Assembly: GCA_963920765.1 (NCBI GenBank) | Contig: OY987251.1 | Coordinates: 3,598,501-3,662,500 of the forward strand | Reading direction: 5' to 3' | Length of the DNA: 64,000 bases | From: Ulota crispa | Lineage: Eukaryota; Streptophyta; Bryopsida; Orthotrichales; Orthotrichaceae | Shown here: piece after piece, positions 6,932 to 57,527 of the stretch | How the letters are laid out: every line of letters starts with the position of its first letter | Position numbering within the stretch: position 1 is the stretch's first letter | Program-made: the position numbers and the translations under genes | Notes under the pieces: generated by a model | Told to the model about the DNA's origin: nothing | Seen by the model: the letters and a program-made list of their open reading frames with translations, nothing else | The model's database searches: none

Positions 6932-7882
6932 TTAGCTCCTAAAGGACCAACTGTCCCCTTGGGGGACAAATGGATTTTGGGCATGTACCTACAGCTAATC
7001 TACTTTTTGTGATTTTTTGAAACTTTTACTCAAGGTGGGGAATTGATAGATCTACTTGGGCATCTAAGCTTTTCTTCATTCTGACATTTATTAAAGAAGT
7101 TATGCATGAACTTTTGAAAAAAGGCAAAGGCGAGCAGTTCAAAAAAAATTCAAAATTGCAATTTTTAGAAATTAAAATTTGAAACTAGTTCTTTAGGTTT
7201 ATACAAATGTGGGAATCTTTAAATCATTCAATTTTTATTGATGAGATGAAAGTTATGAGAAGTTTTAGTTTGCGGGTAGGTATGATATTCCCAAACCTCC
7301 ATTCTTTCTGCCTCTTGTAAAAAAATTGCTTTCCTTTTTTGAGCTCTTTGTGAATTTGTTTTTTGACTTTTTTTTCCCAAGTTGTAGTAGACTAAGATTC
7401 CTTGGTTTTCACCATTTGGATCAAAGTAATTCAAATTTCTCAATTTTACATAAATTCTCCAATTTTGCCCAGCGTATATGCAAATTTCATGGCCTTACGG
7501 CATGGCAAGATTTTACAAAGTATGATCCACACCTCCAATTCACTTGAAAATTCTCCCACACATACCTAACTTGGTCTTCGACATGGAAAAAATAAACCTC
7601 AACTTTGCGTAGAGCAATTTTTTTGATATAGGAGCCGTCAAAGGCTTCTGAAATTATTGGGCAGCACGGAAAAACTTTTTTTTCCACTTCAAATGTCAAT
7701 ATCTTACTCCTCTACTTCTATTGGGCTGAAATTTCTCCCACAAGTACCTCCCATAGTTTAGGACAAGATCTTACGGTTGGATTTTCAAAAAATCTTTTTT
7801 ACTTACCTTTTTACTCATTCTCCAAAAAGTGACAGTTTTGAGTGATTTCAAAGAAAAAAGGGCTTGGTCCTTTAGGGGTTAA
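6932..7882 (-). mobile_element. TTAA element, long subfamily, nested in family D copy 2
   Basis: The left end reads TTAG-CTCCTAAAGGACCAA, the right end CTTGGTCCTTTAGGGGTTAA. The host family D sequence reads AATTG-TTAA-GGCAACC when the element is removed, so TTAA was the target and the left copy has mutated to TTAG. The interior matches the reverse complement of 56595-57527 and 19720-20640, including the GGGGGACAAATGG block inside the left end and the conserved core near 7223-7280. No transposase frame. Confidence 0.75.
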
Positions 7883-7909
7883 GGCAACCTAAATGCAATA
7901 TTCAGTGTA

Positions 7910-9177
7910 GAAGAGTTTGCTAAATTTGGTTACATTTGTGCATTGTGGTCTGGATATCTCAGTGTCCGTTTTCTCAATAAAACTAATCTCTTGTTTTTGT
8001 TACAATTAGCTAGCCTATTGTCGTCTTTCTTCGTCGTCTTTCTACTGCACTTTTTCTACGACCAACTTTCACCCCTCCCTCCCCCCCTGCCGAGATCCTC
8101 ATAATGACACCCTGGCTATTCTCCAGAAACAAAAGAGCTACTGTTCAAAGTTCAGTCCGCTTGCATCAGCCTGATCACAGCAGGCCTATTTTCTGGGGCC
8201 ACTTACAGTCTCCTCCGCCAATCCTCGATCTCATTATTACCAAAAAAGGGACTGGAAGTTTGGACTCTGGAACCCTACCGCATCGAGCAAAACCACCGTT
8301 CAAGCTACTACTCTCTAGCCTAGTCTCAAGTCTGAACAATTATACTTTCGTTATCATAATAGTATTTCTGCAACCAGGCTTAAGTCAACGGTGAAACCTG
8401 CGCTCTAATCACGGAACTTAAAGCGTAAATCTGCTGGGAGCTGGTTTTGTTACTGGACCCACTGACCCAGCATCTGCGGTGTCCTGGTGAGACTCTGACA
8501 AAGAGAAGCATTTCTTTTACATCAAGGACGATCGGACGGACTGCCTTCCTTTTCTTTTTCTAGGCCGCATTGGTCGCCCACTCGTCGGCCACGCCCCGTC
8601 CATTTCCAGCGTCGGATCCACATGCTAGTAAACATGGTAAGATCGGGGCCGTCCGTTTGTAAAAGATGCACGTGGGGCCTGGATCGTTTCGATTGGGAAT
8701 CGTTGCATTTCCTTTTATAACCCCTGAGAGGACTGTAGGTCTGAAAGTACTGAAGGACTGGAGGAGGTTTATTATTAAATTTTTCTGGTTTTGTTTGGCA
8801 GGGCTCGGGTTCTGAGGCGGTGATAGGTCAGGCTGGACTCTGGAGGGAGGGAGGGGGGCCAGTTTGGAATCCGCGCACTCGCGCATTCAAGTTCTCTCAA
8901 ATTTGAGTGGGTCCTCACCGGAGAGACATGTCTTGGTTAGTCCGCTTTTTGACTCTCCTGTCTTTGCTTTCGTGGCGTCCACATGCATCCGTAGGTTCTG
9001 AACGAGGGCCCCTTGAGTTCGCTGCGTGGTTTTTTTTTCTCCTCTAATTCTTGCATAGGTTCTTGAGTTCTTCTGTGTGTAATACTTTGGTTACAAAAGT
9101 CGCACTGTTTTGTATAATTTTCAATTTAAAACTTGTCAAAATGGGGAAGGGTAAGTGCCTTACACAAGGAACGTGTT
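7910..9177. other. Low-repeat, GC-richer patch with no supported gene
   Basis: This stretch contains none of the window's repeat families and is richer in G and C than its surroundings, especially 8040-8300 and 8560-8900. Open frames of about 96 codons at 8104-8394 (+) and 108 at 8560-8886 (-) have no recognisable domains. A promoter-like arrangement is described separately at 8590-8760. It may be the remains of a gene, a non-coding transcript or part of a gene with exons I cannot see. Confidence 0.3.
8590..8760 (+). promoter_or_regulatory. Promoter-like patch: G-box plus TATA-like box
   Basis: A perfect G-box CACGTG lies at 8669-8674 and a TATA-like TTTTATAA at 8713-8720, about 40 bases apart, followed by a GC-rich segment and a possible splice acceptor (TTTGGCAG) near 8802. 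This is the spacing expected of a plant RNA polymerase II promoter with a bZIP/bHLH site. No convincing coding exon follows, so it could drive a non-coding RNA or be a relic. Motifs are seen; the function is inference. Confidence 0.25.
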
Positions 9178-9425
9178 ATTCGTAAAATTGGGAAAAACGT
9201 ACGTACCATTTTGAATTCCACCTGAAACCCAAAAAATTACTTTAAACCATATTCAAAGGTATTAAATTCAGTCTGAGCCACTAAGATTTTTTCCCTCGCA
9301 AATTTCTCCTCTCAAGTGAGGGCACGTGTATCGAAAAAAAACGTTGTGGGCTCAAATTTAGGTGATCACCTGAATTTTTGAAAGTCCCAAAATGTATTGT
9401 TTTTCCCAATTTAACAAATAACGCG
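9178..9425. mobile_element. Diverged MITE family F copy
   Basis: The ends are inverted repeats around AAATTGGGAAAAACG and TTTTTCCCAATTT, and the interior block CACTAAGATTTTTTCCCTCG and the later AAAGTCCCAAAATGTA block match the element at 5665-5920. The outermost bases have diverged (GTTATTCGT and AACAAATAACGCG). It carries no coding sequence. Confidence 0.6.
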
Positions 9426-9443
9426 TTAAGGGCATTCTTGTGT

Positions 9444-10328
9444 TTAACCCCTAAGTGACCAAGGAGCCCATTTTGTGCTTTTGGGATATTTGGGCAGGCA
9501 TTTTCTGAGTAAATACAAAAGATAAGATTGTGAAAACAAGGATGTATGTGCTCAAATTAAAAAGCTTGTATACCTCCAAATAAAAGTGAAATTGAATAAT
9601 TTTTGAGTGATATATGGTGCAATATGTGATTTAGATGTCAACACAGGCATCCTAAAAAAAAACCGAAAACAAAGGGATTGAGGAAGGGTGTTGCCCAAAT
9701 AGTGTTCAAAAGCACTTTACAATGGCTTGGTCAATGGGCAAAATTTGTAATCAACTCTGCTTGACTATGTAATAACTTTTGTTTTACTTTTTATTTTATT
9801 TTTAAAATTTCCTTTGGCAAGTACTTCATATGATGTTCTAGGTTTACACCATAAGGATTTTGTAATTGAGATCTATTTCTATAAGAACCTCTTCAGTGAC
9901 GTTTTCTTAGTGTAATGACAATTTGAACAAAGTGGTTCTTGATTCCAAAAAAATTCCACTATGTTTTAAGCATTGGATGATCATAAAATTTGTGAGGCAT
10001 ATAGTCAACCTCATGCTTTACAAGAAGTTCAAATTGCACAAGAAAACCGTAAAGTAGGAGATATCATTTTGAATGACCAAAAAAACAATTGAAACCTTAG
10101 AGAAGCTTCAAAAAAAGATTTGCCCCTACTTTGAGTGTTATAATCTAATGAAGTATGCCCTCACAAAGTTTGAATTTTTGAGAGGATGTGCATGAGCAAG
10201 TGAAGAAATAGATCTTAAGGTTTCATTATTGACAAAGATTCAAAATTTTGATTTACTAATCATTTTATTGAGAGAGGTCAATTTTGAGCCATTTGACCAT
10301 GTAAACACAAAAGGATTTTAGGGGTTAA
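9444..10328 (+). mobile_element. TTAA element, subfamily with AAAATYCTTTTGTG end
   Basis: The left end reads TTAACCCCTAAGTGACCAAG and the right end CAAAAGGATTTTAGGGGTTAA. Both ends match the inverted copy at 17279-18199: its right end complement also continues GGCCCACTTTG, and its left end continues AAAATTCTTTTGTGTTTA. About 885 bp with no coding frame of note. Confidence 0.65.
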
Positions 10329-10894: not shown

Positions 10895-11820
10895 TTAACC
10901 CCTAAAGCTTTGTTGTCTCCTCACGATACAAATGGGATTTTGGGCACATATTGACAACCTCAATTTTTGTCCTAATTTTTTGAAATTTTGTTTGAAGATA
11001 GAAAAACACATTAGCTTTTGCAGAATACAATTTTTATTCCAATCTATGCCCAAAAGCAAAAGTTATGCCTAGATAAGCAAAAATTTATGGAGATCGGGCA
11101 AAAACAAAATTTCCAAAAACTTGAATTTTTTTTAGATTTTTTTCTCATAGGTTATAGTTTTGTCTATGTCTAAAGCTTTTATTCATTCCATTTGAACTAC
11201 TTATGAGAAAATTATGGACAATCTTGTTTTTTGGGCAACTTAAGCATCTTCTTGAAAAAGTAACTTATAAACTTCATTTTTGAATGCAAATTTAACTCTT
11301 TTTCAAAAATATTGTTGGAAAGGGTGAAGTTTGCTTTTCTAGAACAATCCCACAGTTGGGATTATTGCATTTCAATTCCATTGTAAGGTTATTAAAAGTT
11401 TAAGATTTTGTTCAATCTCATACCTTCTTCTACCTGATGTTTTTTTTAAGAATGAAAATTAAGTATTTTTGTTTTGGTTTTTTTTTTGAGGATTCTCAAC
11501 TTGATTTTCCACCATAGAAAAATTTATCTCAAAACTATGTGGTACAAAAAAATTAAGTTAAAAAAGTTCAAAGTCAAAGAATCTAGTCATGCATGGTGCA
11601 AAAAAGTTTGTCTTTTACACTTTAAACGCAAATATTTTGCAATTTGTGCCATCAAAGTTTTTGAATTTTTGTTTCCACATTCCTATACTAGTCTAGTACA
11701 TGATCATGCGGTTAGATATGCAAAACGACCAATTTTCAAACTTCTTAACTCTTTGCGATAGAAATGGCAGTTTTTGATCGTCTTTTGACAAAATATAGGC
11801 CCTAGGGATTTAGGGGTTAA
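10895..11820 (+). mobile_element. TTAA element, long form (926 bp)
   Basis: Left end TTAACCCCTAAAGCTTTGTT; right end CCCTAGGGATTTAGGGGTTAA. The internal layout (gggattttgggca block near the left end) follows the long subfamily, but sequence has diverged strongly. A 95-codon frame at 11474-11761 is lysine/phenylalanine-rich AT sequence and not convincing. Confidence 0.6.
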
Positions 11821-13303: not shown

Positions 13304-14049
13304 TTAACCCCTCAAGGCCCAAGCAGCCTTTTCTATGTTGTCTAGGGATTTTGGGCAGGTCACTACAAATGAACTTTGCATTTGCTTTTTTTTTTTTCAC
13401 ACATGAAGTACCCAAGGAGTAGCTTTAAGGCCCAACAATTTTCATGACTTTTGACTATATGGTTCAAAAGTTCTTGCATGATCTATTCGTTGTTTTCTTT
13501 GCTCATTAGGGCAGCTTGGGCAGCTCAAAAATTTCTTTAAAAATTACATTTCAAGTTTGGTTTTTTTATGATTGGTTCTTTAGATTTATTTATAAGTGGG
13601 GAGCTGTGAATTATTCAATTTCTGTTAATGAGATGAAAGTTATGAGAACTTTTAGTTTGCGGGCAAGTATGATTTTGAGAGACTCCACACCTATCCAAAA
13701 ACTAAAACCTCTCATAACTTTCATCTCATTAACATAAATTGAATGATTCAAAGCTTTCCACCTATAAATAGATCTAAAGAACCAATTATAAAAAACCAAA
13801 CTTGAAATGTAATTTTTAAAGAAGTTTTTGAGCTGCCTGGGCTGCCCTGACGAGCAAAGAAAACAACAGATCATGCAATAACTTCTAAACCATGTAGTCA
13901 AAAGTCATGAAAATTGTTGGGCCTTAAAGCTACTCCTTGGGTACTTCATATGTGAAAATTTTAAAAAAAAAATGAAAAACTCATTTATAGTGACTTGCCC
14001 AAAATTGCTAGAATGCCAAAATAATGTTGCTTGGGCCTTGAGGGGTTAA
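13304..14049. mobile_element. Giant fold-back TTAA element (arms about 360 bp)
   Basis: Left end TTAACCCCTCAAGGCCCAAG and right end CTTGGGCCTTGAGGGGTTAA are perfect inverted repeats, and the inverted match runs almost to the centre near 13676-13698. Paired blocks include ATGAAGTACCCAAGGAGTAG (13405 region) with its complement near 13925, and GATGAAAGTTATGAGAACTT with AACCTCTCATAACTTTCATC. Frames on both strands inside it (13516-13737 and 13611-13901) translate to similar peptides only because the arms are complementary. Transcribed, it would form a very long hairpin. Confidence 0.8.
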
Positions 14050-16368: not shown

Positions 16369-17282
16369 TTAACCCTTTAGAGACCACCAAACCATATTTT
16401 GGTTCAGGAGAGTGGTTTTTGGCTTATAGAGTAAAATTGTTCAATAATTTGGAAATCGGTCTTGAAAAACGCTTGTGCTCATAAGAACTTTGCATCCAAC
16501 CAAATAAAAAACAATGAAATCAGGCATGTGAGTTGAAAAATAATGGTATTTATACAGCATGACCTCAAAATACGTATCCATATTTGGTCAAAGATGGATC
16601 AAAGCAACAACACAATACATCAAACATCCAAGAAGAATGTCAAATTTTAATTGTGCGGTCCTAGAAAATTTCAAATTACTCAAGAAATACGCTTGTATTG
16701 TTTTTCTATACGGTAGTAGTGTAATTGTAGTATTTGAAGATCTATTGAAATGGTGCTATCATTTCATTTCTAAAATTTGTTGTCCTATATTTAGGGCCCA
16801 TTCTTTATTGTTTTCACCAATTGGATTTTCCATAGCATTTATCAAGTTTCTTGTAGAATTGTTTTTGGGTAGCAAAGAAAGTGGGATTTCTGACCCTTTT
16901 TGTCTACTTAGCTACACCTTATGATTGTTATTTTTATCCATTTTGTGTGAAACTAGTCTCATTGGAAAGGTAGAAAACCCTGCTTTCTAGAAATATAAGG
17001 CTCTTCTCAAATAAAGCTTGTATGAAATAGTAAGATCCAAAACCACATAAGCATAAAAACTAAAGATTTTCCACCTACAACTCACTCAACCATTATAATA
17101 TTTCACCTCCAATGGTAGATCTAGTTATAATTTTGATACTCTATAGTAAATAAGGAGTACTTCTCGTTTGTATGGTTGGATTACTGAAATTGGATCCATA
17201 TTTGATTCAACCGCACATCCAAGTTTACTACCCTAATTTTTGATGAATTATGTGAAAATGTTTATGGTCTTTAAAGGGTTAA
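16369..17282. mobile_element. TTAA element (914 bp), abuts the next one
   Basis: Left end TTAACCCTTTAGAGACCACC and right end GGTCTTTAAAGGGTTAA are inverted repeats. The final TTAA (17279-17282) is at the same time the first TTAA of the next element. The longest internal frame, 16559-16924 (121 codons), shows no known domain and is AT-driven. Confidence 0.65.
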
Positions 17283-18199
17283 CCCCTAAAATTCTTTTGT
17301 GTTTAGAGGCCCAAAACTGCTTCAAAATACTAGTCCCCAAAGCAAGGTCAAAATCTTCATTGAAACTTACTTTTTAACAAATCCAACTATAGGATCCTTT
17401 GGTTGACTTGTATAAATATATTGTCCCAAAATTTCAAAATGAATATCCCCACCAATTGCAAGATCAATGTGCCTAAACCTCAAAATGTAGGCTTTTCTAG
17501 TCCTTCTAGAAGGTGAGGTTTTGTTTTTCAAATTTTTTAGAGAAAAACAAAAATGTTGTAATACTTGTGCAATTTTGGCAATATGTTGGAAAATGGGTTG
17601 AAAGTGTTTATAAAAAAATTTAACCAAAAAAGATTCTCATTCAATTTTGCAAAAATTGTAAAGTGCAAGGTATTGATGAATGAAAGATATAACTAATATG
17701 CTAATAAGTTTTGGAAGAATTTGAAAATTGTTAATCCCAATGGTGAGAATGCTCTAACAAACAATTAGTAACTTTCATTTTCATTTTCATTTGAAAATTT
17801 TCAAAATTGAGAGTAAAAGATAACTTTATATGTTTTTTCTACCCTCTTCCTACCTTCATTGCCCGCAAAAGAAAACTCCTTTTAACTCTTACCTCATTAT
17901 TTGGAATTGAGGGATTCAATTTTTTTTGAGTAGGTATCAATCTATACAATTCTATAAAAATAAAATGAAAAAAAATTAGAATATATTTTTTGCTGCCCGG
18001 TTTGACATTGAAATTGAAAAAACCTTCTAACTTTTGCATTACTTATCGGAATGACATGAAATAAAGCTTCACATGTAGATTATGATGAGTAGGATCAATC
18101 CTAAAAAGAACATGAAAAATTTCCAAATTATGAAATCAATAGAGTTTGCCCAAGTTCTCATAAAGCCCAAAGTGGGCCCCTTGGTCCTTTAAGGGTTAA
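17279..18199 (-). mobile_element. TTAA element (921 bp), shares TTAA with its neighbour
   Basis: Left end TTAACCCCTAAAATTCTTTT and right end CCCCTTGGTCCTTTAAGGGTTAA. It is an inverted relative of 9444-10328. A diverged form of the conserved core (CCTCATTATTTGGAATTGAG) lies near 17890. No transposase. Confidence 0.65.
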
Positions 18200-19698: not shown

Positions 19699-20661
19699 TT
19701 AAATAAAATCAATAAACACCCTACTGGACCAAGCCATTTTTTCTGTGAAAAAGACTGAAAACTGCCACTTTTGGGAAAACAAGTACAATAGTAAGAAAAA
19801 AAATTCTTCAAGAACTCAACCGTAAGATCTTTTAGTAGACTACAAGAGGTACACGTGGTAAAAATATTAGCCCAATCTACACAAAACTAAGTGAGATATT
19901 CACATCTGAATTGTGGAAAAAAATTTCTTTTTGCTGCTGCCCAAAAACTTCAGAAGGCTTTGACCACTCTTAGAGCAAAAAAATTACTCTACACAAAGTT
20001 GAGGTTTATTTTTCCCATGTAGAAGACCAAGTTAGGTATGTGTGGGTGAATTTTCAAATCAATTGGAACTATTCAACACATGGGAAAAAATAGTAAGTAA
20101 AAAGAAGTAGAGAATGAGTCAAATCACTAAATTGTTAAAAATTTAATTATTTCAAATGAAAAAAATGCAAATCCCAATGGTCATAATGGTGTGATAAACA
20201 ATCTCCATCGTTTGATTTTGCTTTTTTTTCCAAAATATTGAAAATGGAGTAAAATAAAGGACTTCAAAGTTTATTTTAGAGTAGAGAAGTTAGAACTACT
20301 TGCAAACCAAAACTCCTCATAACTTTCATCTCATTTATCAAAATTGAATGATTCAAAGCTCCCCACGTCTACATAAGTCTAAAGAACCTATTTCAGATTT
20401 TTATTTTAAAAAGCTGAAATTTTTAAAGAAGTTTTTGGCTGCCCGGGGAGCAGCTTTTTCTAGATTTTCATGCATAACTTTTTTAATAAATGTCAAAATG
20501 AAGAAAAAAATACATTCCCATGTAGATCTTTGAATTCCTCACCTTTAATAAAAGTTTCAAAAGATCACGCAAAGTAGTTTAGCCATAGGTACATGCCCAA
20601 AATCCCATTTATCCCCAAAGGGACAAAGGTCCTTTAGGGGTTAAATAAAATCAATAAACAC
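19699..20661 (+). mobile_element. TTAA element flanked by a 21-bp direct repeat
   Basis: The element body is about 19720-20640: left CCTACTGGACCAAGCC, right GGTCCTTTAGGGG. It is flanked by a perfect 21-bp direct repeat at 19699-19719 and 20641-20661 that begins with TTAAATAAAATC, instead of the usual 4-bp TTAA. The interior matches 56595-57527 closely, including CTCATAACTTTCATCTCATT near 20318 and CAAAGGGACAAAGGTCC near the right end. Confidence 0.75.
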
Positions 20662-22089: not shown

Positions 22090-23013
22090 TTAACCCCTAA
22101 AGGACCAAGCAAAGTTTTCACCAAAAACTTTTCAAAACTGCCATTTTTAGAGCATCAATCAAATTAGAAAACAAAAACATTTTCATGCATATGTGACTGT
22201 AGGATCTTGTAGAAGAATGGTAATAGAAGATGTGGAAAAATTTTCAGAGTTTTCCACCACGTGGATTGGAAGTTAGAATGGTTTGAATATTCAAAAACAT
22301 CTAGTGAAAAATCAAGCAGCTACCCTTCAAAAAGTGAAATTTTTAAGGAAAAAAGGTCATGTGGGTGGTGCTTCTCTAAATTCCTTATTCCACCTAAGTA
22401 AAGTACATGTCAAAAAAGTTTCAAATCATTTGGAGTTGTATAACATATGGAAAAAAACTAATAAGTAAAAAGAAGTAGAGAATGATTCAAAACACTAAAT
22501 TGTTAAGAATATAATTATGGAAATGAAAAATGCCAATCCCAATGGTTGTAATGTTATCATAAACAATCTTCATCATCCTTTGGTTTTGTTTTTTTTCTAA
22601 AATATTGAAAATTGAGTAAAATAAAGGACTGCAAAGTTTATTTTGGAGTAGAGAATCCATAACTGCCCGCAAACAAAAAATCCTCATAACTTTCAACTCA
22701 TTGATTGAAATTGAATGATTCAAAGCTTCCTACTCTTACATAAATCTCCTTAACCAATTTTAAAAATTATTTTTGAAAAAAGCGATTTTTGAAAATCTGC
22801 CCAAGCTGCCCAACAAGTGTAAAAAACAACATATTAGGCCATAACTTTTTACTCATAATTCCAAATATCATAAAATTTAGTGCATATGAAAGATAAACGT
22901 CGTCTCCACATTCTATTAAAATTTCAGCCTAAAATATGAAAAGCTCCAATCACATATACTTGCCCAAAATTGCTATGTTTCTAATAAAGGGGGTATGGTC
23001 CTTTAGGGGTTAA
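22090..23013 (+). mobile_element. TTAA element, long subfamily (924 bp)
   Basis: Left end TTAACCCCTAAAGGACCAAG and right end ATGGTCCTTTAGGGGTTAA are near-perfect inverted repeats. The interior block TGCCATTTTTAGAGCATC and the core CTCATAACTTTCAACTCATT near 22682 are shared in inverted order with 30676-31591 and 31588-32501. It has no coding frame of interest. Confidence 0.75.
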
Positions 23014-23373: not shown

Positions 23374-24323
23374 TTAACCCCTAAAGGGTCAATTGGTGTT
23401 TTCACCAAAACTGCCAAAATTTGTATTTTTTCAGTACGTTGATGTGAATTTTAATTTGAAAACTATTTTTGAAACTTAAACCATACAAAATTGTAGTAAA
23501 ATATTTTGGTATTGAGTGCAAAAAAATTCAGCCCATTTGATCACATGTTGAAAGATTCTAGCATTCAAAATTTATAAAAAGGTTTTTTTTGTCCTTGCCC
23601 AAATAGGCTAGCACACTTTGATCCTCTTTGGAGTCAAATTTTTGGTCGGTATGAATTAATGATTTTTTCCACTGATATCTAAAACTTGTTAGGTACACTC
23701 ATGAAAAGTTTCAAAAGTGAATTATGAATCTAGCTTACTCTAAATTGCCTTGCAGTATAAGGAGGTTAAGTGAATTGGCAATACATTAGTCATTCTTTCA
23801 TGATTTCTTGTGCACTCAAGACATCTTTTATTTGAAATCTAAATGGTGAAAATTCAGAGAGAAACATTTGAAATGTTTGAAAAAACAATTCAAGAGCTTT
23901 GGATTTATATATTGAAAGATAATAGGCCTTGAAGTTAGAGGAAAACATTTTTTCTTGAAATTGTCCAAACATAGTTAACAAATTTTGACTCTCTTTAGAA
24001 TGTAATGTGGGACCTCATTTTTTTTTGACGGTTGTACACCATATCTTTTTAGTTACATACTTGCCAAATTTCAAGAGTTGATGAGAGTTTTAGCATAGAT
24101 TCTCCAAAGATGCCCAAACTGCCCAAGCTGCCCTAATTTTTTTGGGTAGCATAACTTTTGAACTAAGCATTCAGATTAAGAAAAATATTTATTTCCATTT
24201 GGGGAATACATGTTTACACCTTTTGGATCAATTTTGAGAAGATCTAATAAAAATTAACTCCATATGACCCTACCCGAATTCTCAAGTGGCTATTGAACAA
24301 ACACTTGGGCCTTCAGGGGTTGA
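23374..24323 (+). mobile_element. TTAA element with decayed right end
   Basis: Left end TTAACCCCTAAAGGGTCAAT; right end TTGGGCCTTCAGGGGTTGA, where TTAA has become TTGA. Early bases (TTTTCACCAAAACTGCCA) follow the layout of 22090-23013. The rest has diverged. Confidence 0.55.
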
Positions 24324-28328: not shown

Positions 28329-28710
28329 TTAACCCCTAAAGAACCAAGTCCATTTTTTCTCAAAATACACTCAAAACTACCATTTTTTTCATTTATTTTT
28401 AGAACAAAGATATTATATTTTGTAGAGACCTTATTGTAGAGACCTTACTCCATAATCTTGCATTAGATTTAAGCAAGAAGATACAGTGAAAGTTTTGTGA
28501 GGTCTCATTGTACAAACTGAGAGAAATGATCATCCAAAGTAAATTTGATTTCAATCAAAACTTTACTATGCATGTGGCTCTTACAAAACGACACCCCAGG
28601 AAGAAAAAAAAAAGAAAAAAAAAGAAAAAAACGGATCAAAAGTTTGAATACTATAAGCCAGCCCAAGATCTATTTTATGTACATGACGATTTTAGTTCTT
28701 TAGGGGTTAA
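28329..28710. mobile_element. TTAA element, 382-bp form
   Basis: Left end TTAACCCCTAAAGAACCAAG and right end AGTTCTTTAGGGGTTAA are inverted repeats. The interior contains a small tandem duplication (TTGTAGAGACCTTA twice near 28420-28447) and an A-rich run near 28600-28630. A 69-codon frame inside is lysine-rich because of that run. Confidence 0.65.
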
Positions 28711-28857
28711 AACGTGAATTTTGAAAAACGTGGAAAAGTACTTTATATACATAGTGTATTTGCACATTATACTAGTTCAAAAACACTATATAAGTACACT
28801 ACACATATAGAGTACTTTGTCACATTTGTTGAAATCCACATTTTAACCCCCAAATGC

Positions 28858-29420
28858 TTAACCCTTAAGTGCCAGGGGTGGTCACCATGTCTGCCCCTTG
28901 TACATTTTTTAAAGTGAAGAGTGACATCTCTAGGGGTGCCCGCACATCAAAATATTATTTAAACAAATTGCAAAAGTCAATAGTGCATAGTGCCCTCATG
29001 AAAATTACAGTAAGTACAGCTTGAGACCTAACACAATGATTTTAAAATTTCTCACAATTTGGGTTTTTTACAAATATGAGTGCAATTAATGAGGTGATTT
29101 TTTGTCTTCTATGATGGATCATGTCTTTATGATCACTTTTGAGAAAAATCAGAAGTGATCATAAAGACAAGATCCCTCATAGAAGACAAAAAATCACCTC
29201 AGTAATTGCACTCATATTTGTAGGTAACCTAAATTGTGAGAAATTTTAGAATCATGGTGTTAGGTCTCAATATGTCCTTACAATAAATTTCATGAGGGCA
29301 GTGTGCCCTATTGACTTTTGCAACTCTTTTAAATAATATTTTGATGTGCGGGCACCCCTAGAGATGTCACTATTCACTTTAAACAATGTACAAGGGGCAA
29401 ACACGGTGACCACCCCCGCT
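28858..29420. mobile_element. Giant hairpin element (arms about 275 bp)
   Basis: Left end TTAACCCTTAAGTGCC is TTAA-type; the right end has decayed (CCCCCGCTGTCTAACC). The inverted repeat runs to the centre near 29145, where ATGATCACTTTTGAG faces CAGAAGTGATCAT. Long blocks pair perfectly, such as GTGACATCTCTAGGGGTGCC near 28921 with its complement near 29352. By eye the arms are about nine-tenths identical. Part of one arm also occurs once in the 379-bp element at 50711-51089. Confidence 0.8.
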
Positions 29421-30389
29421 GTCTAACCCCTTGTTGCATGAGGGGTCGAAAAGTGTCCTTTGAGACTCTACCATTGTAATTCAAAGTGCTGATTCTTTTG
29501 CATTGATAGTTTAAATCCAATAAAATTTCTTGGCAAAGTTGCACATACTAATCTAGTTTTTGTGGTGAAAATTTTAAAACAATCTAAGAAGTATTGAGTT
29601 TGTGAAAGCCATTCAAAGTTCATAGATTCAATTTGAGTTCACCACATTGCATTGTGATGGCTGCAACTTCGAGGGCTTGTATCTTTTTCACCAAATGTTT
29701 GTTTTCAATAAAATTTGATGGATTTTGTTCCCTTTAAAGCTTGCTAATTGTATTAGAATTTTCATGTCAATCCAAGTTGTTTTAAATGTTTGGGAGCAAC
29801 TCAAGTTCAAAATCCATACACTTTATTGTTATTGTGAACTTTGGTGGCTTATAACTTCTTCTTATAACATTCATTTTTAGTATTCTTTTATTAGGAAAGT
29901 TGTGTATAATAGTCTAGTTGTTGCTATCAAAATTTTGTATCAATCCAAAAAGTTATGAGTGAATGAGAAGCATTTTGATAGAGGGAGGTTTAGCCATAGA
30001 TGTGATTTATTGCTACTTCTTTCATTGTTTTTTGACATTTCAAAACAATCATGCAAACAAAAGGAGTATATTGATTGATATTGTCTATTACCAATGTGTT
30101 TGTATATTGGTTTGAATTACTTTACATTTTAATTGTTTTTCATTTGAGTAGGTTTAGAAATCAAATTTCACCTCAAAAAAAATTCAACATTTTTTTTCAG
30201 CACTAAAACATTATAATCTTCCAATCTATGTGGTAAAATGACCCCAAATTTGATCCACATCATCTGCAACATACACACTACAAAGATTGTACGGTTGAGA
30301 TTTTCATACTCCACTAGCATTGAGACTTATTAGAACACCTAAAAAACAAGGATGCATGTAAGCCTCTTCGGACCTTAGGCGATGAGGGA
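29421..30389. other. Unassigned AT-rich sequence
   Basis: No gene recognised. The end at 30375-30393 (GATGAGGGATTAA) may be the right terminus of another TTAA subfamily, but no matching left terminus is clear. Confidence 0.3.
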
Positions 30390-30675: not shown

Positions 30676-31591
30676 TCAACCCCTAATGGACCAAGCTCCC
30701 TTTTTTTTAGCAACATAGCAATTTTGGGCATGTATTTGTGGTTAGAGATTTTCATATTTTGGGTTGAAGTTTTAATTGAATGTGGGAACAAGGTTTATCT
30801 TTCACATTCACTAAATTTCATGACATTAGGAAGTATGAATAAGAAGATATGCCCTAGTTTGTTATTTTTTTCACTTGGCGGGCCACCCAGGTGGAATTTA
30901 ATAAATCACTTTTTTCAAAAAAAAAAAATTGAAATTGGTTTAGTATATATGTGAAAGTGGAAAACTTTGAATCATTCCGTTTTGATCAATGAGATGAAAG
31001 TTACAAGAAATTTTTGTTTGCATGCAATTATGGATTCTCTACTCTAAAATAAATTTTGAAGCCCTTTATTTAACTCAATTATCATTATTTTGGAAAAAAA
31101 AATACAACCAAAGGATGTAAACTGTTTATTACAACATTACAACCGTTGGGATTGGCATTTTTTGTTTTCCTAATTCATTCTTAACAATTTTGTGTTTTTG
31201 ATCATTCTCTACTTCTTTTACTTACTATTTGTTTTCCATATGTTGTGTAATTCCAAAGGGTTTGAAACTTTTTTGACATGTATCCTACTTAGGTGGAATT
31301 AGGAATCTAGAGAAGCACCACCCACACGGTCTTTTTTCTTTTGGAATTTCACTTTTTGAAAGGTAGCTGCCCAGTTTTCACAAGAAGTTTTTGATTTAAA
31401 CTGTTCCATCTTCTAGTCCGCATTGTGAAAAATCATGATTTTTTTTTGAAATCTTCTAAAACTATCCTACTACAAGATCCTACGGTTACATATGCATAAA
31501 ATGTTTTTGTTTTCAAATTTGGTGGATGCTCTAAAAATGGCAATTTTGGAAAGTTTTTGGTGAAAATGATGCTTGGTTGTTTAGGGGTTAA
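30676..31591 (-). mobile_element. TTAA element, long subfamily (916 bp)
   Basis: Left end TCAACCCCTAATGGACCAAG (TTAA mutated to TCAA), right end CTTGGTTGTTTAGGGGTTAA. It is the inverted counterpart of 22090-23013, sharing the GAGATGAAAGTTACAAG core near 30990 and the GATGCTCTAAAAATGGCA block near 31525. Its last TTAA is also the first of the next element. Confidence 0.7.
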
Positions 31592-32501
31592 CCCCTAAAA
31601 GACCAAGCTGCCTTTTTTAGAAACATAGAAATTTTGGTGAGGTACTTGTGATTGGAGATTTCCATACTTTAGATTAAAATTCTTATTGAAAGTGGGGATG
31701 AGGAATATCTTTCATTTCCACTAACTTTCATGACGTTTGGAATTGTGAGCAAAAAGATATGGCCTAATATGTTGCTTTTTATGTTCGGCGGGTAGCTTGG
31801 GCAGTTTTTTTAAAATCACTTTTTTCAAAAACTAGAATTTAATGTTGGTTCAACAGATTTATATGTGTGTGGGAATCTTTAAATCATTCCATTTGGATTG
31901 ATGAGATGAAAATTATGAGGAGTTTTTGTTTGCGGTAATTACAGATTCTCTACTCTAAAATAAACTTTGAAGCCTCTTATTTTACTCAATTTTCAATATT
32001 TTTGAAAATATGTAAGACCAAAGGTTGTAAATTTTTACTCACAAAATTACAACTATTGGGATTGATTTTTTAATTTTCCATAACTAAATTGTTAATATTT
32101 AATGTTTTTGATCATTCTCTACTTTTTACTTTCTATTTTTTTCCCACGTGTTGTACAATTCCAAATGATTTGATTTTTTTATAGGCACCCTACTTAGGTC
32201 GAATATGGAATCTAGAGAAATACCGCTGACATGGCCTTTTCTCCTTAGGAATTTCACCTTTTGAAGGTAGCTGCTTGATTTTCCACATGGCCCAAAAATA
32301 CTTTTCAAATTGTTCTACCTTCCAATCCACTTGGTGAAAAATTCTGAAATTTTTTCCACATCTTCAAAAACTAATGCACTACAAGATCCTATGATAACAT
32401 ATGCAGAAAAGCGTTTTTGTTTTTGGATTCGGTTGATGCTCTAAAAATCGCAGTTCTTGAGAGTTTTTGATAAATACTAAGCTTGGTCCTTTAGGGGTTA
32501 A
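31588..32501 (-). mobile_element. TTAA element, long subfamily (914 bp), tandem to the previous one
   Basis: Left end TTAACCCCTAAAAGACCAAG, right end CTTGGTCCTTTAGGGGTTAA. It is collinear with 30676-31591 over most of its length and in the same orientation. The two share a single TTAA at 31588-31591. Confidence 0.75.
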
Positions 32502-32746: not shown

Positions 32747-32976
32747 CCCCTAAACGTTTGAGCGTGCTGCTCCGACTAGTACAATACATGATATTTTTCT
32801 TGTATTTGGAATGGATTCGCACCTCTACTACATTTGAAATCAACAAAGAAGTTGGAAAATAGATTAATGCGATTCTAGTGAGCTACTTGAGATCCCAAAT
32901 TAAAATTTCTTATTGGTAACAAATGACAATTATACGTCAGCGTATATACTATGCCCTATGGACGTTCAAAAGTTAA
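32743..32976 (+). mobile_element. 240-bp TTAA element, copy 2, sharing TTAA with copy 1
   Basis: Left end TTAACCCCTAAACGTTTGAG, right end GACGTTCAAAAGTTAA. It is collinear with 32506-32746, in the same orientation, and the TTAA at 32743-32746 is common to both, as expected from insertion of one element into the flanking target of the other. Confidence 0.75.
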
Positions 32977-33842: not shown

Positions 33843-35259
33843 TTATTTTTATTAGTTTTAGAGGTTTGTGGCTTGTTTCACGATTGAGTGCTTCATGATT
33901 TGTATGCAAGATTTTGACTTAGTTCATTGTCAAGATGGGAGGGATTGCAATATTTTGGGCCTACAAGCGTTTCTTGTTATGTTTTGAGCGACAAGTTAAT
34001 TTTCAAACAAGGATACTCGTAGTAATTTGTCCCCTATTCTTTTTTTTTTCAATTGTATTCTCCTCCAAGGTCCTTAGATTTCAGCAAGGTCTCTAAATCC
34101 AAAATTGAATTCAGAATTCCCGGATTCAATCTCTAAATGGTAAATTTTTGAACTCTCACAAAAAACAAATTGAAATACAAAATAACAAAGCTATTTCACT
34201 ATGGCCCCAAGTTGCAAAACATGGCAAGACACAGTCACTAGCTTTTAATTTTTGGCAAAAGTTTGCCTAATTTTTACCTCATAACTTGAGTGGCCATTAT
34301 AACACTAGAAAATTTCTTGAAATAAATGAATGAATTTGCCAAATCCCTCCCATGTTTGCACCAGATTCACCAATTTTTGGATGAAAGCTACTAATATTAG
34401 TAGATTTCTTGGATGAATGTACTCACGTCGTTGATTTCACCCAACTCTGTACAAATTTTCTTACCTGTTAGCATGGTGGGGTGCGTGTCGCTCTACCAGG
34501 GAAATACCAAAAATTAAACGCTGACGGTCACAAGTCCTAAATATTGCTCTCCAGATGGGAGCAATAAGAATCTTGCAAAAATAAGGATCTTGGTTTTGTA
34601 GTTTTCTTGGATTGTAATTTAAATTTCCTCAGAATCTACTTTTTTGACCTTTGCGCTCTTGAGGGTTCACCCTTAGGAGTGTAGGGGTGAAGCATGTAGA
34701 TCTAGAGCTTTTTTAGGCAAATAAATTATGGTATAAGAAGGTTTTAGAAACAGGATCTTCAATTTTGCAAGATTTGTTTCTTCCATCTTTACATGAACTG
34801 ATTTGAAGACCTGCTCAAAAACTACGAAGCACCTAATACTGAAGCTAGTCCCAAACTTAAAGAGTAAACAAAAACAAAATTTTAAGCGTACTTGGATGTA
34901 CTTCATCCTTTTTACCCTGCTTTGACAGCAAGCGTTTAGGATCATGCAGCATCCACATCTTGGTAGCTGACACATTTGGGGGTTAATGTTGCCCATTGGG
35001 TCTCAAGCAAATGTAATAGTTTTGTTGTTTGGAATTTATATAGAATGAACATTGACCTTTTATTTCCTTACATCTAAAAGTGCTTAGAAGTATTGTATAG
35101 GTTTTGTAGAAATGGTATTTCAAGGCAAATGAATGGCCTCTCCTTTGTAAGTGGGTGTTGACTCCAAAGAGGGTCAGCCCTTGTGGGTACAAGACACTTG
35201 GGCAGAAGGAGAGTGCAATGGAAGGTGCTCATCTTGGGAACTCCTGAACCTACATTCTT
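33843..35259. other. Mostly unassigned; old dispersed repeat at 34254-34430
   Basis: Bases 34254-34430 are a diverged relative of 3893-4065. A 107-codon minus frame at 34673-34996 and others nearby have no known domain. From about 34977 a decayed TTAA-type end (TTTGGGGGTTAA) may belong to the element whose right part follows. Confidence 0.35.
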
Positions 35260-35846
35260 TTTGCCCTTTGTAAAATTTGGTGCTTTCATTTATTAAGCAG
35301 TTTGAGTTTTTTTTATATTAATTTTCTCCCAAGTTGTAGTGGGCTAAGAATCCTTGGCTTTCACCATTTTGATCAATGTGATTTTTATATTTTAAAATTG
35401 TACATAAAGCCTCCAATTTTGCCTAGTGTATATGCAAATTTCATGACCTTCTAGCATTCAAAGATTTTTGGAAGATACACCTTCAATTGATTTGAAACTT
35501 CTTCAATATGTATCCTTGTATGTATCTAACTTGGTTTCTTACATGGAACAATTAAACCTCAACTTTGCATAGAGCAATTCTTTTGCGACAAGAGTGGTCA
35601 AAGGCTTCTGAAATTATTGGGCAACAAGGAAAAACTTTTTTTTATCACTTGAGATGTCAATACCTCACTTGTCTATATGTAGAATGAGCTAATTTTTTTC
35701 CCACGAATACCTCCCATAGTCTAAGGCAAGACCCTATAGTTGAATTTACAAACAAAAACTTCTTTCCTACTTTTCTACTCATTCCCCCTGAAGTGGTAGT
35801 TTTTGCTGACTTTCACAGAAAATAGGGCTTGGCCTTTAGGCGTTAG
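35260..35846 (-). mobile_element. Decayed partial TTAA element, long subfamily
   Basis: The interior is collinear with 7310-7882: CTTGGCTTTCACCATTTTGA, CCTCAACTTTGCATAGAGCA and TCTGAAATTATTGGGCA blocks match. The right end is GGCTTGGCCTTTAGGCGTTAG, a decayed version of the usual terminus. The left end is missing or too diverged to place. Confidence 0.55.
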
Positions 35847-44635: not shown

Positions 44636-44865
44636 TAGTATATGTTAGGCCACGGAATTCAAATGCAAACTCAAAATTTTCAAATTTGACATTTTGTGGT
44701 AAATTTTGGAAACTGATTTTTCCCTTGCATAGTAATATTTTAATTTTGAAATTCATCTTGAATCTGTAATAAAGAAAAAAGAAGGATTTGGAAAAGATGT
44801 ATGCAAGCCTTGTGTTTACTAAAAAAAAAAAAAAAAACCTTTGGATAATTATTAGTGTACGGCTG

Positions 44866-45098
44866 TTAACCCTTAAAGGACCATAGGGCATAGTATATAC
44901 GCTGCCATATAATTGGTATTTGCTACTAGTAAGAAATTTTAATTTGGGATCTCAAGTAGCTCACTAGAACTGCTTTGATCTATTCTCGACTCCTTTGTTA
45001 ATCTCAAATGTAATAGAGATGTGGATCCATTCCAAATACAAGAAAAATACCCTGTATTATACTAATAACAACGGCGCGCATAGTCCTTTAGGGGTTAA
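44866..45098 (-). mobile_element. 240-bp TTAA element, copy 3 (inverted)
   Basis: Left end TTAACCCTTAAAGGACCATA, right end AGTCCTTTAGGGGTTAA. The interior is the reverse complement of 32506-32746 (GGGATCTCAAGTAGCTCACT block). A run of 17 or so A residues lies just outside it at about 44821-44837. Confidence 0.75.
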
Positions 45099-45540: not shown

Positions 45541-46812
45541 TAACCGCACCCATAAGCGTGAAAAGGAGGGTTTTGGAGTAGGTAAACAATTAATTAACTT
45601 TGAAAAATATTGTAAGTAAGCAAGAGGAAACTTAAAACGTTGGCATCAATTTCAAGGTTTCAACTGCAAGCATTTGTTCACAAATATTTTTTAAAGCCCA
45701 AAATCATTTACAATGTAAAGTCATGTGTAGGAGATGCTAAAAACAAGACTTATTGGTTCTTAACCCCTAAAGGACCAAAGTCCCCTCAAGGGATTTTTAA
45801 GATTTTGGGTAGGCTCATGTGACCTCAAATTTTTACATGATTTTTTGAAACTTTTTATGAGTGTGTAGGAATGTATAAGGTTTGTGGGATGCAAAAAATC
45901 ATGTGCTTATGTCACACAGTTCACAAGTTATGGGTTTTTTTTTGGCCAAAAGCAGTTTGAGGGGCAGCTTGGGCAAGGGAGAAAATATTGACTTTGGAGG
46001 GGGGGAGCAAGGAGGGGTTGCCACATGTTGCTTTGGTGGTCCCCATTATTTCATCATTGCTCCCTTTCATTTCCAATTAGAAGGTCATAATAGGCTTTGG
46101 GAGCTTCTAAATTTTTTAGATATTCTAAATTTCTTAAATTTTCTTTCCTTAGACATCTAAAATACATGTTTATCTTCATACACATTGTTTGGATTTTCCA
46201 TGTCTAAAAGCATGAGGTGGAAAACTTCACTCAAAAACGTCATAGTGTATTGGCAAAACTTGTTATGTAATGGCATTGCAATATTTTTTAGGATATATTT
46301 TGTGTAATTGCCTTGAAAATTGGTATACATATGTCTGACTTGATTACCTATAAGATAAATTACATCTTCAAGGTTTGTAGTGCAAACAAAGTTTGCAAAT
46401 GGCGGTCAAGGCCACCTGAAATTTTTGGCATCATGGGAAAAAAAAACTTTTCTCTTCAAATGCTCATAAGTTTCAATCTGTATAGTCAAATGTCACAAAA
46501 TTTTCAGCACTTCTTCTTTTACAAGTGCATTACAAGATCCTATGGTTAAATTTTCAAGAAAAGCATTCTGGTGTAATTTTTGATGAACACAACATTAGGG
46601 GCAGTTTTGAGTGGTTTTTGGCAAAAAATGGCCTTGGTAGTTTAGGGGTTAAATAGTGAGATGGGGTACTCAAAGCTATCATGCTAGTCACCCACAACCA
46701 TCACTTTAGTACCCATAATTAATTTTTTTAATACTTGCTAATATTGATAGTGTGACCAAGGCGTAGGTCACGGGCATGGAGACCCTCATGGGGATGAGTG
46801 CTGCTACCTTAA
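45541..46812 (+). repeat. Dispersed repeat R, copy 1, split by a TTAA element
   Basis: Bases 45541-45763 and 46649-46812 together match 51581-51985 collinearly (CCGCACCCATAAGCGTGAAA, GTGTAGGAGATGCTAAAAAC, AATAGTGAGATG, CCCATAATTAATTTTTTTAA). The 45760-46652 element sits between. Function unknown; perhaps a member of another transposon family whose ends I did not find. Confidence 0.65.
45760..46652 (-). mobile_element. TTAA element (893 bp) with an empty paralogous site
   Basis: Left end TTAACCCCTAAAGGACCAAA, right end CTTGGTAGTTTAGGGGTTAA. Flanking sequence GGTTCTTAA...TTAAATAGTGAG corresponds to GGTCCTTAGAAATAGTGAG in the copy of repeat R at 51581-51985, which lacks the element. The interior follows the long subfamily layout but is diverged. 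A 92-codon frame at 45882-46160 is not convincing. Confidence 0.8.
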
Positions 46813-50413: not shown

Positions 50414-50655
50414 TTAACCCTTAAAGGACCAAGCTACTATAATACATACTATGTACGATGCTATATAACTGACATTTCTTGCTAACAAAAAGTTTTAATT
50501 TGAGATCTTGACTACCTCATTAGAATAGCATTGATTTGTATTCTAACTTCTTTGTTGATCTCAAATGTAATAAAGGTGTGAATGCACTCCAAACACAAGA
50601 AAAATACTCCGCATTGTACTGGTTGCAAAGGGCTATTTGGTCGTTCAAGGGTTAA
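50414..50655 (-). mobile_element. 240-bp TTAA element, copy 4 (inverted)
   Basis: Left end TTAACCCTTAAAGGACCAAG, right end TTGGTCGTTCAAGGGTTAA. The interior matches the reverse complement of 32506-32746 (AACTTCTTTGTTGATCTCAA block). Confidence 0.7.
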
Positions 50656-50710: not shown

Positions 50711-51089
50711 TTAACCTGTAAAGAACAAGGCTAACGTTTATTGTGTGCTATTTATGAAAAAAAAACACTTTGTAGGACAATAAAAAGTTGTTTTTCATCT
50801 CATTTTTTTGGACTTGATCACAAGTACATGGCCCACCATGGAAGGCAAAAAACAATCTAAACCATTGTACTCATATTTGTAGGTAACCCAAATTGCAAGA
50901 GAAGTCAAAAACATAATGTTAGGTTTCATGCTACTTATCCTGCAATTTTCATGAGGTCATCATGCATTATTGACTTTTGCAACTTTTGTAATTTTTATCC
51001 CTTAAATGCCAATGGAGATGAAAATTGTCCCTGACAAAGACATTGAGCCCATATATTTGTGACAATAGGCCCAGGTGCTTAAGGGTTAA
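50711..51089 (+). mobile_element. 379-bp TTAA element related to one hairpin arm
   Basis: Left end TTAACCTGTAAAGAACAAGG, right end GGTGCTTAAGGGTTAA. Blocks TACTCATATTTGTAGGTAAC, AATGTTAGGTTTCATG and TTTTCATGAGG match the right arm of the giant hairpin 28858-29420 (near 29205-29300). This element is not itself a long hairpin. Confidence 0.6.
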
Positions 51090-51580
51090 AAACAGGCACT
51101 TCGCCACACCATTTTAGTGCACTGTAGGGCAACGGTAGAGGGGCTCAAACAAAATTAAAAAACTATTTTTTTAAATAAGCGCTGACAAGGTAATCAACCA
51201 TTGCGTGTCCTGAGGTTTTTCCAAACCTAAATTTGATACGTGCATCTCAGCTACCTGGACCAGTGATATTTGTCATCAACGAGGGTCCATGTCAGTTTAA
51301 GACATGTGTCCTGGTCTTCAAGTATGAATCAATCAGGAAGCCTAATAAGAGCCCCGCCCTGCAGTACAATGATCTGATGTTACATGTCCACAAAAACACA
51401 CATCGTGCTCAATTCCAAGTACTTAGAAAAAAAAAACGATAAATAAATACCTTGCAGGGGCATTGTTTTGAAGTGCTATTCATATGAAAAACTCTGTTGC
51501 ATTCTGTAAGCCTTATTTCCATTTACACCCCTCTCTCCTGATTAGTGGTTGGGTAGGGACAACGCTATTTTGTAAGGAAG
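51090..51580. other. Unassigned sequence
   Basis: No gene recognised. A 69-codon frame at 51233-51442 shows no domain. Confidence 0.3.
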
Positions 51581-52243: not shown

Positions 52244-52412
52244 TTAACCCTTGAACGGCCCTTGGGGGTGGTGCTACGGGACCGTAATTGAATCCGTATC
52301 TTCTTGCTCCAAACAATTTTATGTTAGGAAAAATGACAATAACCGTAAAAACTGCCCAATACCCCCAATACACATATGGCCACAAAGGGCTTTGAGGCCA
52401 TTCAGGGGATAA
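52244..52412. mobile_element. Shortest TTAA element (169 bp)
   Basis: Left end TTAACCCTTGAACGGCCC and right end GAGGCCATTCAGGGGATAA are inverted repeats; the right TTAA has become ATAA. The interior contains no frame of interest. Confidence 0.55.
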
Positions 52413-55382: not shown

Positions 55383-55482
55383 ATTTCACATTGAATTGAT
55401 GAGTTGCACAATCAAGCACACTTCTACAATCCAAACACATTGTTTTTGTCATTTCATATAAGTTACGCTATATACTTCCAAA

Positions 55483-55791
55483 GGAAAATTTTATGGATAC
55501 CCTTGAAGTTTGCAATATTTTCATAGGTACCTCTGCTTTTTCAGAAATATCACAAATACCCTTGGATCAAAGATTTTAGATATTTGTTTTGTTGTGCAAG
55601 GCACTTCCCTTTTCTCTTGTGCCCATGCATATCACGAAAGAAGTAGAGTGCGCACAAAGGGAGAAGGAAGTGACATGCACAACAAAATAAATGCTGAAGA
55701 GTTTGGTCCAAGGGTATTTGTGATATTTTTGGAAAACCAGGGGTATCTATGAAAATATGTCAAACTTCTGGGGTATCCATAAAATTTTCTC
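55483..55791. mobile_element. Palindromic MITE family C, full copy
   Basis: Starts GGAAAATTTTATGGATACCC, ends GGTATCCATAAAATTTTCTC. Both halves carry the inverted CTTGGATCAAAG / TTTGGTCCAAGGG and GGCACTTCC / GGAAGTGACATG blocks typical of the family. Confidence 0.65.
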
Positions 55792-56594
55792 TATCTCTAA
55801 ACATGTTTCTAAAAATGTAGCTTAGAGCATCTCCAACCGACTTGTAGTTTTCCATGCCAACAAATTGGAGTGTTTTTTGTTTGCAAAGTTGTATTATAGT
55901 AATTTCCTCCACCCGTGAAACTAGGTAGAATAGTGTTCAATCAACAAGAAGTCTCCTTGATTGAAAAATTAGATATTTAGATTCTCCATCATTGTTTACT
56001 CAACCTATTAATTGATCAAAGAAAACTGGTTTTAGAAGAGTTGTTGTGCATTGAAAAAATGCAAATTTTGCAATGCAAGAGTGAATATTTTTGCGGATTA
56101 GAACATTAATTGCCTCCTTTTCATTCAAAAGTGCATCTAACATGGTGTTTTGCCATATGGGTGGAGATGCTCTTACATGTTAATCAACAGGCTAAACCAA
56201 AATCATCAAGGATAACTGATTGTATTAGGGAAAGACCATTTCAAACTAAAAATTTATAAGCTTATTCTAGGGAAGTAGAGTTAAGGACAAAAAGATCCAT
56301 TCCTTACTCATACTCCTCCCACTTAGTCAATTTCTCATTTAGTCTAAAACTAATTACATATTTTTATAGTTTAGAAAGGGGGACAAAGTTAATGAATATT
56401 TAACACAAAGCAAACTAGGAGAATTATTATTTAAAAAAATTAAAGTTTCTTTTATTGTTAAAATACTCTTGAAATCAATATAAAACCATCACCAATTTTT
56501 CAATATGTTCTCAACTTGTTCTGAATTTGCAAGAGGTTAGCTTGAGGTGAGGCAATTTCAAGTTCAATGGGAAGACACCTGAGATTGCATTGAA
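55792..56594. other. Unassigned sequence
   Basis: No gene recognised. Bases 56440-56580 resemble 21120-21250 weakly, perhaps an older repeat in front of two TTAA elements. Confidence 0.3.
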
Positions 56595-57527
56595 TTAACC
56601 TCTAAAGGACCAAGCCCTTTTTTTTTTGCCAAAATCACTAAAAACTGTCACTTCTAGGAGGTTTAGAAAAAATGGATTTTATGTTTTGTTTTGGGAAATC
56701 CAACCATAGGGTCTTGTTCCAGACTAGAAGAGGTACTTGTGGGAAAAAAATCAGCTCATTCCAAATGGAGAGGAGTGAGATATTTATATCTAAAGTGAAA
56801 AAAAAACTTTTTCCATGCTGCCCAAAAATTTCAGAAGCCTTTGACCACTCTTATAACAAAAAAGTTGCTCTACCCAAAGTTGCGCTTTATTTTTTCCATG
56901 TAGGAGATCAAGTTAGGTATGTGTGGGAGAATTTTCAAATCAATTGAAACTATCCAACTTATGGGAAAAATTAGTAAGTAAAAAGAAGTAGAGAATGAGT
57001 CAAAACACCAAATTGTTAAGAATTTAATGATGGAAATGAAAAATGAAAATCCTAGCAGTGATAATGTTGTGATAAACAATCTACTTCCTTTAGTTTTAAT
57101 TTTCCAAAATATTAAAAATTGAGTAAAATAAAGGACTTCAAAGTTTATTTTAGCGTAGAGATACCATAACTACCCGCAAACAAAAACTCATAACTTTCAT
57201 GTCATTGATTGAAATTGAATGATTCAAAGCTTCTCATGAATAATAAAATCTAAAGAACCAATTTCAAATTTGAGTTTTAAAAAAAAAGTAATTTTTAAAG
57301 AAGTTTTAGGACTGCCTGGACGGGCAATTCTCCCCAATTTTTTTGAAATTTGTGCATAACTTCTTCATCAAATGTTGGAATGAAGAAAAAATTAGATGAC
57401 CACATGAATCTTTTAATTCCCCATTTTCCATAAAAGTTTCAGAAAATCACACAAAGTAATTTAGCCATAGGTACGTGCCCAAAGTCCAGCCTGTCCCCCA
57501 AAGGGACAACGGTCCTTTAGGGGTTAA
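56595..57527 (+). mobile_element. TTAA element, long subfamily (933 bp)
   Basis: Left end TTAACCTCTAAAGGACCAAG, right end GGTCCTTTAGGGGTTAA. It closely follows 19720-20640 and the reverse complement of 6932-7882, with the core CATAACTTTCATGTCATTGA near 57188 and the CCCCCAAAGGGACAACGG block near the right end. A 91-codon frame at 56672-56947 repeats in other copies and is not transposase-like. Confidence 0.75.

What the first reader, a model, noticed from the sequence alone, without database searches (positions are those of the whole stretch)
6932..57527. A large superfamily of non-autonomous TTAA-flanked elements fills the intergenic DNA
About 22 elements begin TTAACCCCTAAAGG (or variants) and end with the complement, in size classes of about 170, 240, 380, 750 and 900-980 bp. 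Subfamilies share only the ends, or the ends plus a core. piggyBac, Kolobok and Sola3 are known to target TTAA, and TTAA families of this abundance are not something I know from plants. No transposase is visible, so the driver is unknown.
Basis: partly seen in the sequence, partly recalled or inferred. Interest (0 to 1): 0.75.

Follow-up and report, generated by a model that had tools for sequence, protein, structure and literature searches.

The report
Moss genome packed with TTAA-transposon fragments
About a tenth of the sampled DNA of this moss consists of short, gene-less jumping-DNA copies that insert into the sequence TTAA and have piggyBac-like ends, an abundance that seems unusual for a land plant, but the enzyme that moved them was not found because that search did not complete.

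Summary
The window lies in a moss genome (best named relatives of its ALOG gene: Ceratodon 80%, Physcomitrium 71%). It has about 20 elements with inverted TTAACCCCTAAAGG-type ends. Genome-wide there are 36,702 such ends (20-mer, up to 3 mismatches; reversed control 13). They cover 10.9% of a 197-kb sample and 21% of the window. TTAA is a 4-bp target duplication: conservation starts exactly there, 3,038 of 3,614 perfect inner ends carry it, and related unoccupied sites hold one TTAA in 6 of 15 comparisons and a changed single site in 9. Ten copies of one family lie 3.6-5.8% from consensus. Longest open frame inside: 126 aa. Neighbours sharing a TTAA are no commoner than chance. Ends 5'-CCCC...GGGG-3' fit piggyBac and contradict Kolobok. 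The decisive test, a piggyBac transposase within these ends, was not made: the genome search for PF13843 did not complete. Reading: piggyBac-type MITEs, driver inferred, unusually abundant for a land plant.

The parts
6932..7882 (.). TTAA element, 951 bp (left site TTAG)
9444..10328 (.). TTAA element, 885 bp
10895..11820 (.). TTAA element, 926 bp
13304..14049 (.). TTAA foldback element, 746 bp (matches its own reverse complement at 84.5%)
16369..17282 (.). TTAA element, 914 bp, diverged ends; shares its right TTAA with the next
17279..18199 (.). TTAA element, 921 bp
19713..20644 (.). TTAA element, about 932 bp, left end decayed
22090..23013 (.). TTAA element, 924 bp; relatives genome-wide at 88-91%
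23374..24323 (.). TTAA element, 950 bp (right site TTGA)
28329..28710 (.). TTAA element, 382 bp; not a high-copy family, possibly an internal-deletion derivative
28843..29449 (.). foldback element, 607 bp, arms 90% complementary, diverged ends (TTAA/TCGA)
30676..31591 (.). TTAA element, 916 bp (left site TCAA); shares its right TTAA with the next
31588..32501 (.). TTAA element, 914 bp, 75.7% identical to its left neighbour
32506..32746 (.). TTAA element of the 240-bp class; shares its right TTAA with the next
32743..32976 (.). TTAA element of the 240-bp class, 82% identical to 44866-45098
35247..35846 (.). fragment of a 950-bp-type element with one recognisable end
44866..45098 (.). TTAA element, 233 bp; relatives genome-wide at 86-91%
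45760..46652 (.). TTAA element, 893 bp; a related empty site with one TTAA was found
50414..50655 (.). TTAA element, 242 bp
50711..51090 (.). possible TTAA element, 380 bp, diverged ends (right site TAAA)
52244..52412 (.). possible TTAA element, 169 bp, diverged ends (right site ATAA)
56595..57527 (.). TTAA element, 933 bp

Best explanation
These are non-autonomous cut-and-paste DNA transposons (MITEs and somewhat longer relatives, about 0.17 to 0.97 kb) of piggyBac type. A transposase encoded elsewhere recognises the short inverted ends (consensus 5'-CCCCTAAAGGACCAAG), cuts the element out and joins it into a TTAA site, which then stands at both ends. As only the ends need to be recognised, elements with unrelated or recombined cores were amplified together. 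Shown here: inverted ends, 4-bp TTAA duplication, dispersion, copy number, lack of coding capacity, shared and mosaic cores. Inferred: that the transposase is of the piggyBac superfamily and acts in trans by the usual cut-and-paste route. Whether it still exists in this genome is untested.
For: Boundary: with the inner end alone (up to 4 mismatches, window plus 20 sample stretches) 55 of 88 hits have exact TTAA outside and the base beyond is not conserved; of 20 shuffled motifs (7 to 30 hits each) 18 have no TTAA hit and two have one. Genome-wide 3,038 of 3,614 perfect inner ends have exact TTAA. Empty sites: of 15 comparisons of joined flanks with related loci, 6 show exactly one TTAA, 9 a changed or poorly aligned single site, none two. 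Of 35 paired elements under 1 kb, 25 have exact TTAA at both ends and 10 at one, and 1 of 35 has an identical 4-mer outside TTAA (pairs had been chosen with at most 2 mismatches to TTAACCCC at each end, so the TTAA share is favoured, the outer 4-mer is not). Copies of the 924-bp family are dispersed with different flanks. Ends begin 5'-CCC, as a large number of piggyBac elements do (PMC10813416, passages), and not 5'-RR as in Kolobok (PMC9587614, passage).
Against: No transposase was found, and the whole-genome PF13843 search did not complete, so piggyBac rests on the duplication and a few terminal bases, which is weak evidence for a superfamily. The commonest piggyBac start in PMC10813416 is CCCTT, here it is CCCCT. 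Longest open frame in the 45 listed pairs (duplicates and a few nested or false pairs included) is 126 aa. A 5.9-kb interval between two perfect ends held no coding element.
Confidence: 0.7

Rival explanations
1. The driver is Sola3, and the elements are its MITEs.
For: The TTAA duplication does not separate these families. Sola copies (2,739, subgroup not given) are listed for the fern Ceratopteris (PMC6890710, table passage).
Against: The CCC start matches the piggyBac pattern. No source with Sola3 termini was seen, so the ends were not tested.
Confidence: 0.13
2. The driver is an undescribed TTAA-specific superfamily.
For: No transposase is known for these ends; thousands of copies with one end type and no coding copy among those seen.
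Against: Duplication and ends fit a known superfamily, and the search for its transposase did not complete, so absence is not shown.
Confidence: 0.1
3. The driver is Kolobok.
For: TTAA duplication.
Against: Kolobok termini are 5'-RR and YY-3' and its listed plant hosts are chlorophytes and rhodophytes (PMC9587614, passage); here the ends are 5'-CC and GG-3'. The THAP-domain search of the genome did not complete.
Confidence: 0.04
4. TTAA is part of the element, or the duplication is TTA/TAA (PIF/Harbinger) or TA (Tc1/mariner).
For: TTAA contains TA and TTA; the pairs share it by construction of some searches.
Against: All four bases are conserved when only the inner end is used as query, 3,038 of 3,614 genome-wide, and empty sites hold one TTAA or a changed single site. 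Only 1 of 35 pairs has an identical 4-mer outside.
Confidence: 0.02

Closest known systems
piggyBac superfamily and its MITEs
   Same: TTAA duplication; ends beginning 5'-CCC; short inverted repeats (4-24 bp in most, PMC10813416, passages; about 14-20 bp conserved here)
   Different: No transposase seen; CCCCT instead of the commonest CCCTT; host is a moss; 10.9% of sampled sequence against 1,230 copies and 0.00% of the genome in the fern Ceratopteris (PMC6890710, table passage)
Kolobok and its T2-MITEs (Xenopus)
   Same: TTAA target, very many short non-autonomous copies (PMC6004289, passages)
   Different: Kolobok ends are 5'-RR/YY-3', T2-MITE ends AGGRR; here 5'-CCCC
Tourist (PIF/Harbinger) and Stowaway (Tc1/mariner) MITEs of flowering plants
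   Same: Short, non-coding, high-copy plant elements with inverted ends
   Different: Duplications of TAA/TTA and TA (PMC10004981, passage), here TTAA

Membership tests
piggyBac | 4-bp TTAA target duplication | tested here: met
piggyBac | terminal inverted repeats beginning 5'-CCC | tested here: met
   (85 ends, up to 2 mismatches to the 14-base end); pattern for comparison from PMC10813416 passages
piggyBac | DDD transposase of the PF13843 type between such ends | not tested
   request sent 33 times, never answered
Kolobok | 4-bp TTAA target duplication | tested here: met
Kolobok | termini 5'-RR and YY-3' | tested here: not met
   ends are 5'-CC and GG-3'; definition from PMC9587614 passage
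Kolobok | transposase, usually with THAP domain | not tested
   not answered
Sola3 | Sola3 termini and transposase | not tested
   no reference sequence or family model was at hand
PIF/Harbinger (Tourist) and Tc1/mariner (Stowaway) | TAA/TTA or TA duplication | tested here: not met
   all four bases of TTAA conserved and kept singly in empty sites; definitions from PMC10004981 passage
MITE / non-autonomous DNA transposon | short, inverted ends, target duplication, no coding capacity, many dispersed copies | tested here: met

The most novel reading that the evidence does not exclude
A land-plant lineage in which one TTAA-specific transposition system, piggyBac-type or undescribed, has built about a tenth of the genome (at least some 18,000 copies if the 36,702 ends pair up), by a transposase not yet recorded from mosses in anything I saw.
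Probability: 0.35. Interest if true: 0.65.

Novelty: new member of a known kind. Interest (0 to 1): 0.48.

Why it matters
If a piggyBac-type transposase drives these elements, mosses would be a land-plant group in which this superfamily is a main genome builder, which bears on where TTAA transposons survive in plants. A working moss transposase could also serve as a plant-derived TTAA gene tool. Independently of the driver, the genome offers thousands of datable insertions with a known target.

Tried and rejected
Transposase by family in the whole genome: PF13843 (piggyBac) not answered. THAP (PF05485) and DDE_3 (PF13358, meant for the second repeat family) not answered either. Pattern and DNA requests to the same tool were answered.

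Long copies: one long pair of perfect ends (5.9 kb on C1) from the first 100 listed positions was fetched; it holds three paired short elements and one more end, longest open frame 113 aa. The 1,452-bp pair in L009 is a 950-type element with a further insertion. Two loci that matched the left part of the 382-bp element (L046, L047) hold other short elements, longest open frames 102 and 133 aa.

Proteins: Pfam on 5 of the 10 window open frames and on 10 of 286 open frames of at least 90 aa from sample and window, chosen by eye, gave no transposase; the rest were not scanned.

Self-targeting: window elements that share one TTAA with a neighbour (17279, 31588, 32743, less clearly 30676) suggested a preference for element ends. 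Genome-wide the exact junction palindrome occurs at 21 places against about 33 if left and right ends (7,692 and 7,719) fall independently on about 1.78 million TTAA sites (density), or about half of that if order of insertion is allowed for. No excess; rejected.

Literature: PMC10619864 (moss genome) matched only through 'piggybacking' (passages). Searches for TTAA or piggyBac elements in mosses and liverworts listed no such report by title. Passages on Sola3 gave no termini. Rfam: no match in the window.
Full report
Setting. The window is G000:C10:3598501-3662500 of a 274.8-Mb genome in 157 contigs. An open frame at 1081-1980 carries an ALOG domain (PF04852, E 6.6e-63). Its best named relatives are mosses: Ceratodon purpureus 80%, Physcomitrium patens 71%. 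The host is therefore a moss; the species was not identified.

The observation. Sites like TTAACCCCTAAAGG occur on both strands and pair in inverted orientation. Within the window, elements share ends and parts of the core at about 65-90% identity and in different combinations: 22090-23013 and 56595-57527, for example, share a 366-bp core at 81%. Two elements are foldbacks (13304-14049 and 28843-29449). The longest open frame in the 45 pairs listed is 126 aa; that list contains duplicates, because some loci overlap, and a few nested or false pairs.

Genome scale. Exact TTAACCCCTAAAGG occurs 15,411 times (reversed control 1). TTAACCCCTAAAGGACCAAG at up to 3 mismatches occurs 36,702 times (control 13), some 18,000 elements if all ends pair. 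A library of 32 paired elements under 1 kb covers 10.9% of 197 kb from 20 stretches of 10 kb (0 to 33% by stretch) and 21.1% of the window. The library was drawn from the same sequences, so self-matches are included, while families that it lacks are missed. DNA searches with five window elements, each scoring only 40 candidates: 924-bp element, 40 of 4,905, 88-91% apart from itself; 893-bp, 40 of 1,209, 83-90%; 233-bp, 40 of 3,561, 86-91%; 950-bp, 40 of 1,757, mostly 83-87%; 382-bp, 40 of 349, none but itself covering more than 223 bases. An internal deletion is the likeliest origin.

Target duplication. With the inner motif alone, 55 of 88 hits have exact TTAA outside and the base beyond is not conserved; of 20 shuffled motifs 18 had no TTAA hit and two had one each. 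Genome-wide, 3,038 of 3,614 perfect inner ends (84%) carry exact TTAA. Of 35 pairs under 1 kb, 25 have TTAA at both ends and 10 at one, but the pairs had been picked with at most 2 mismatches to TTAACCCC at each end, which favours TTAA; the outer 4-mer, not so picked, is identical in 1 of 35. Joined flanks were compared with related sequences elsewhere: 15 comparisons for 6 elements, chosen by me from the spanning matches. Six show exactly one TTAA at the junction, for instance 45760-46652 against L023 with 34 and 36 of 40 flank bases identical (in one of the six the left flank is poorly aligned, 19 of 40). In nine the site is changed (TTAG, TTGA, TTTT, TAAA and the like) or poorly aligned. 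None shows two copies. TTAA is thus duplicated on insertion and is not part of the element.

Age. Ten copies of the 924-bp family lie 3.6-5.8% from their consensus, and six copies of the 893-bp family are 88-93% identical to each other. TTAA kept at 84% of perfect inner ends corresponds to about 4% change per base. All three samples favour young copies: the loci were the best matches to the window copy, and the inner ends had to be perfect. No copy above 91% to the query was seen among those scored.

No self-targeting. Several window elements share a TTAA with a neighbour, but genome-wide the exact junction is found at 21 places, about what random use of TTAA sites predicts (17 to 33).

Which superfamily. 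Kolobok termini are 5'-RR and YY-3', in contrast to piggyBac (PMC9587614, passage); here they are 5'-CC and GG-3', so Kolobok is contradicted. A large number of piggyBac elements begin 5'-CCC, with TTAA duplications and inverted repeats of 4-24 bp (PMC10813416, passages), which fits, although the commonest start there is CCCTT and here it is CCCCT. Tourist and Stowaway have other duplications (PMC10004981, passage). The same passage lists PiggyBac among angiosperm MITE superfamilies, so the kind is not new to plants. The abundance seems unusual: the fern Ceratopteris has 1,230 PiggyBac copies at 0.00% of the genome (PMC6890710, table passage). My paper searches listed no report of such elements in mosses, in a library that lacks most subscription journals.

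What is missing. Sampling could not replace it: one 5.9-kb interval between perfect ends proved to hold three paired short elements and one more end. The driver is therefore inferred, and its absence is not claimed.

Verdict. A real, very large set of TTAA-duplicating non-autonomous transposons in a moss, most likely of piggyBac type. The way they work is ordinary for MITEs; the abundance in a land plant and the unseen driver are what make them worth following.

Noticed in passing
33522-33845, 39272-39455, 44587-44637, 55483-55794, 63044-63362, 63373-63696: A second, unrelated repeat family, in several places a foldback of about 310-325 bp, with ends like GGGAAAATTTCATGGATACCC...GGGTATCCATGAAATTTTCCC, possibly flanked by TA.
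   Followed up: partly
47765-47996: Near-perfect hairpin: 112-nt arms, 96% complementary, 8 nt between them; a young foldback element or a small-RNA precursor. No Rfam match in the window.
   Followed up: no
6299-6598 and 26675-26974: 300-bp direct repeat at 88% identity without TTAA-type ends.
   Followed up: no
45603-45762 and 51642-51801: Another repeat (86%); the first copy is the target into which element 45760-46652 inserted, which gave one of the empty-site tests.
   Followed up: yes
25540-25689: Tandem repeat with a 30-bp spacing, units rich in CCCGATCCCGCAACC.
   Followed up: no
1081-1980: ALOG-domain gene of moss type.
   Followed up: partly
30676-32976: Run of four TTAA elements almost head to tail, with single TTAAs shared at 31588 and 32743; no genome-wide excess of such junctions.
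   Followed up: yes
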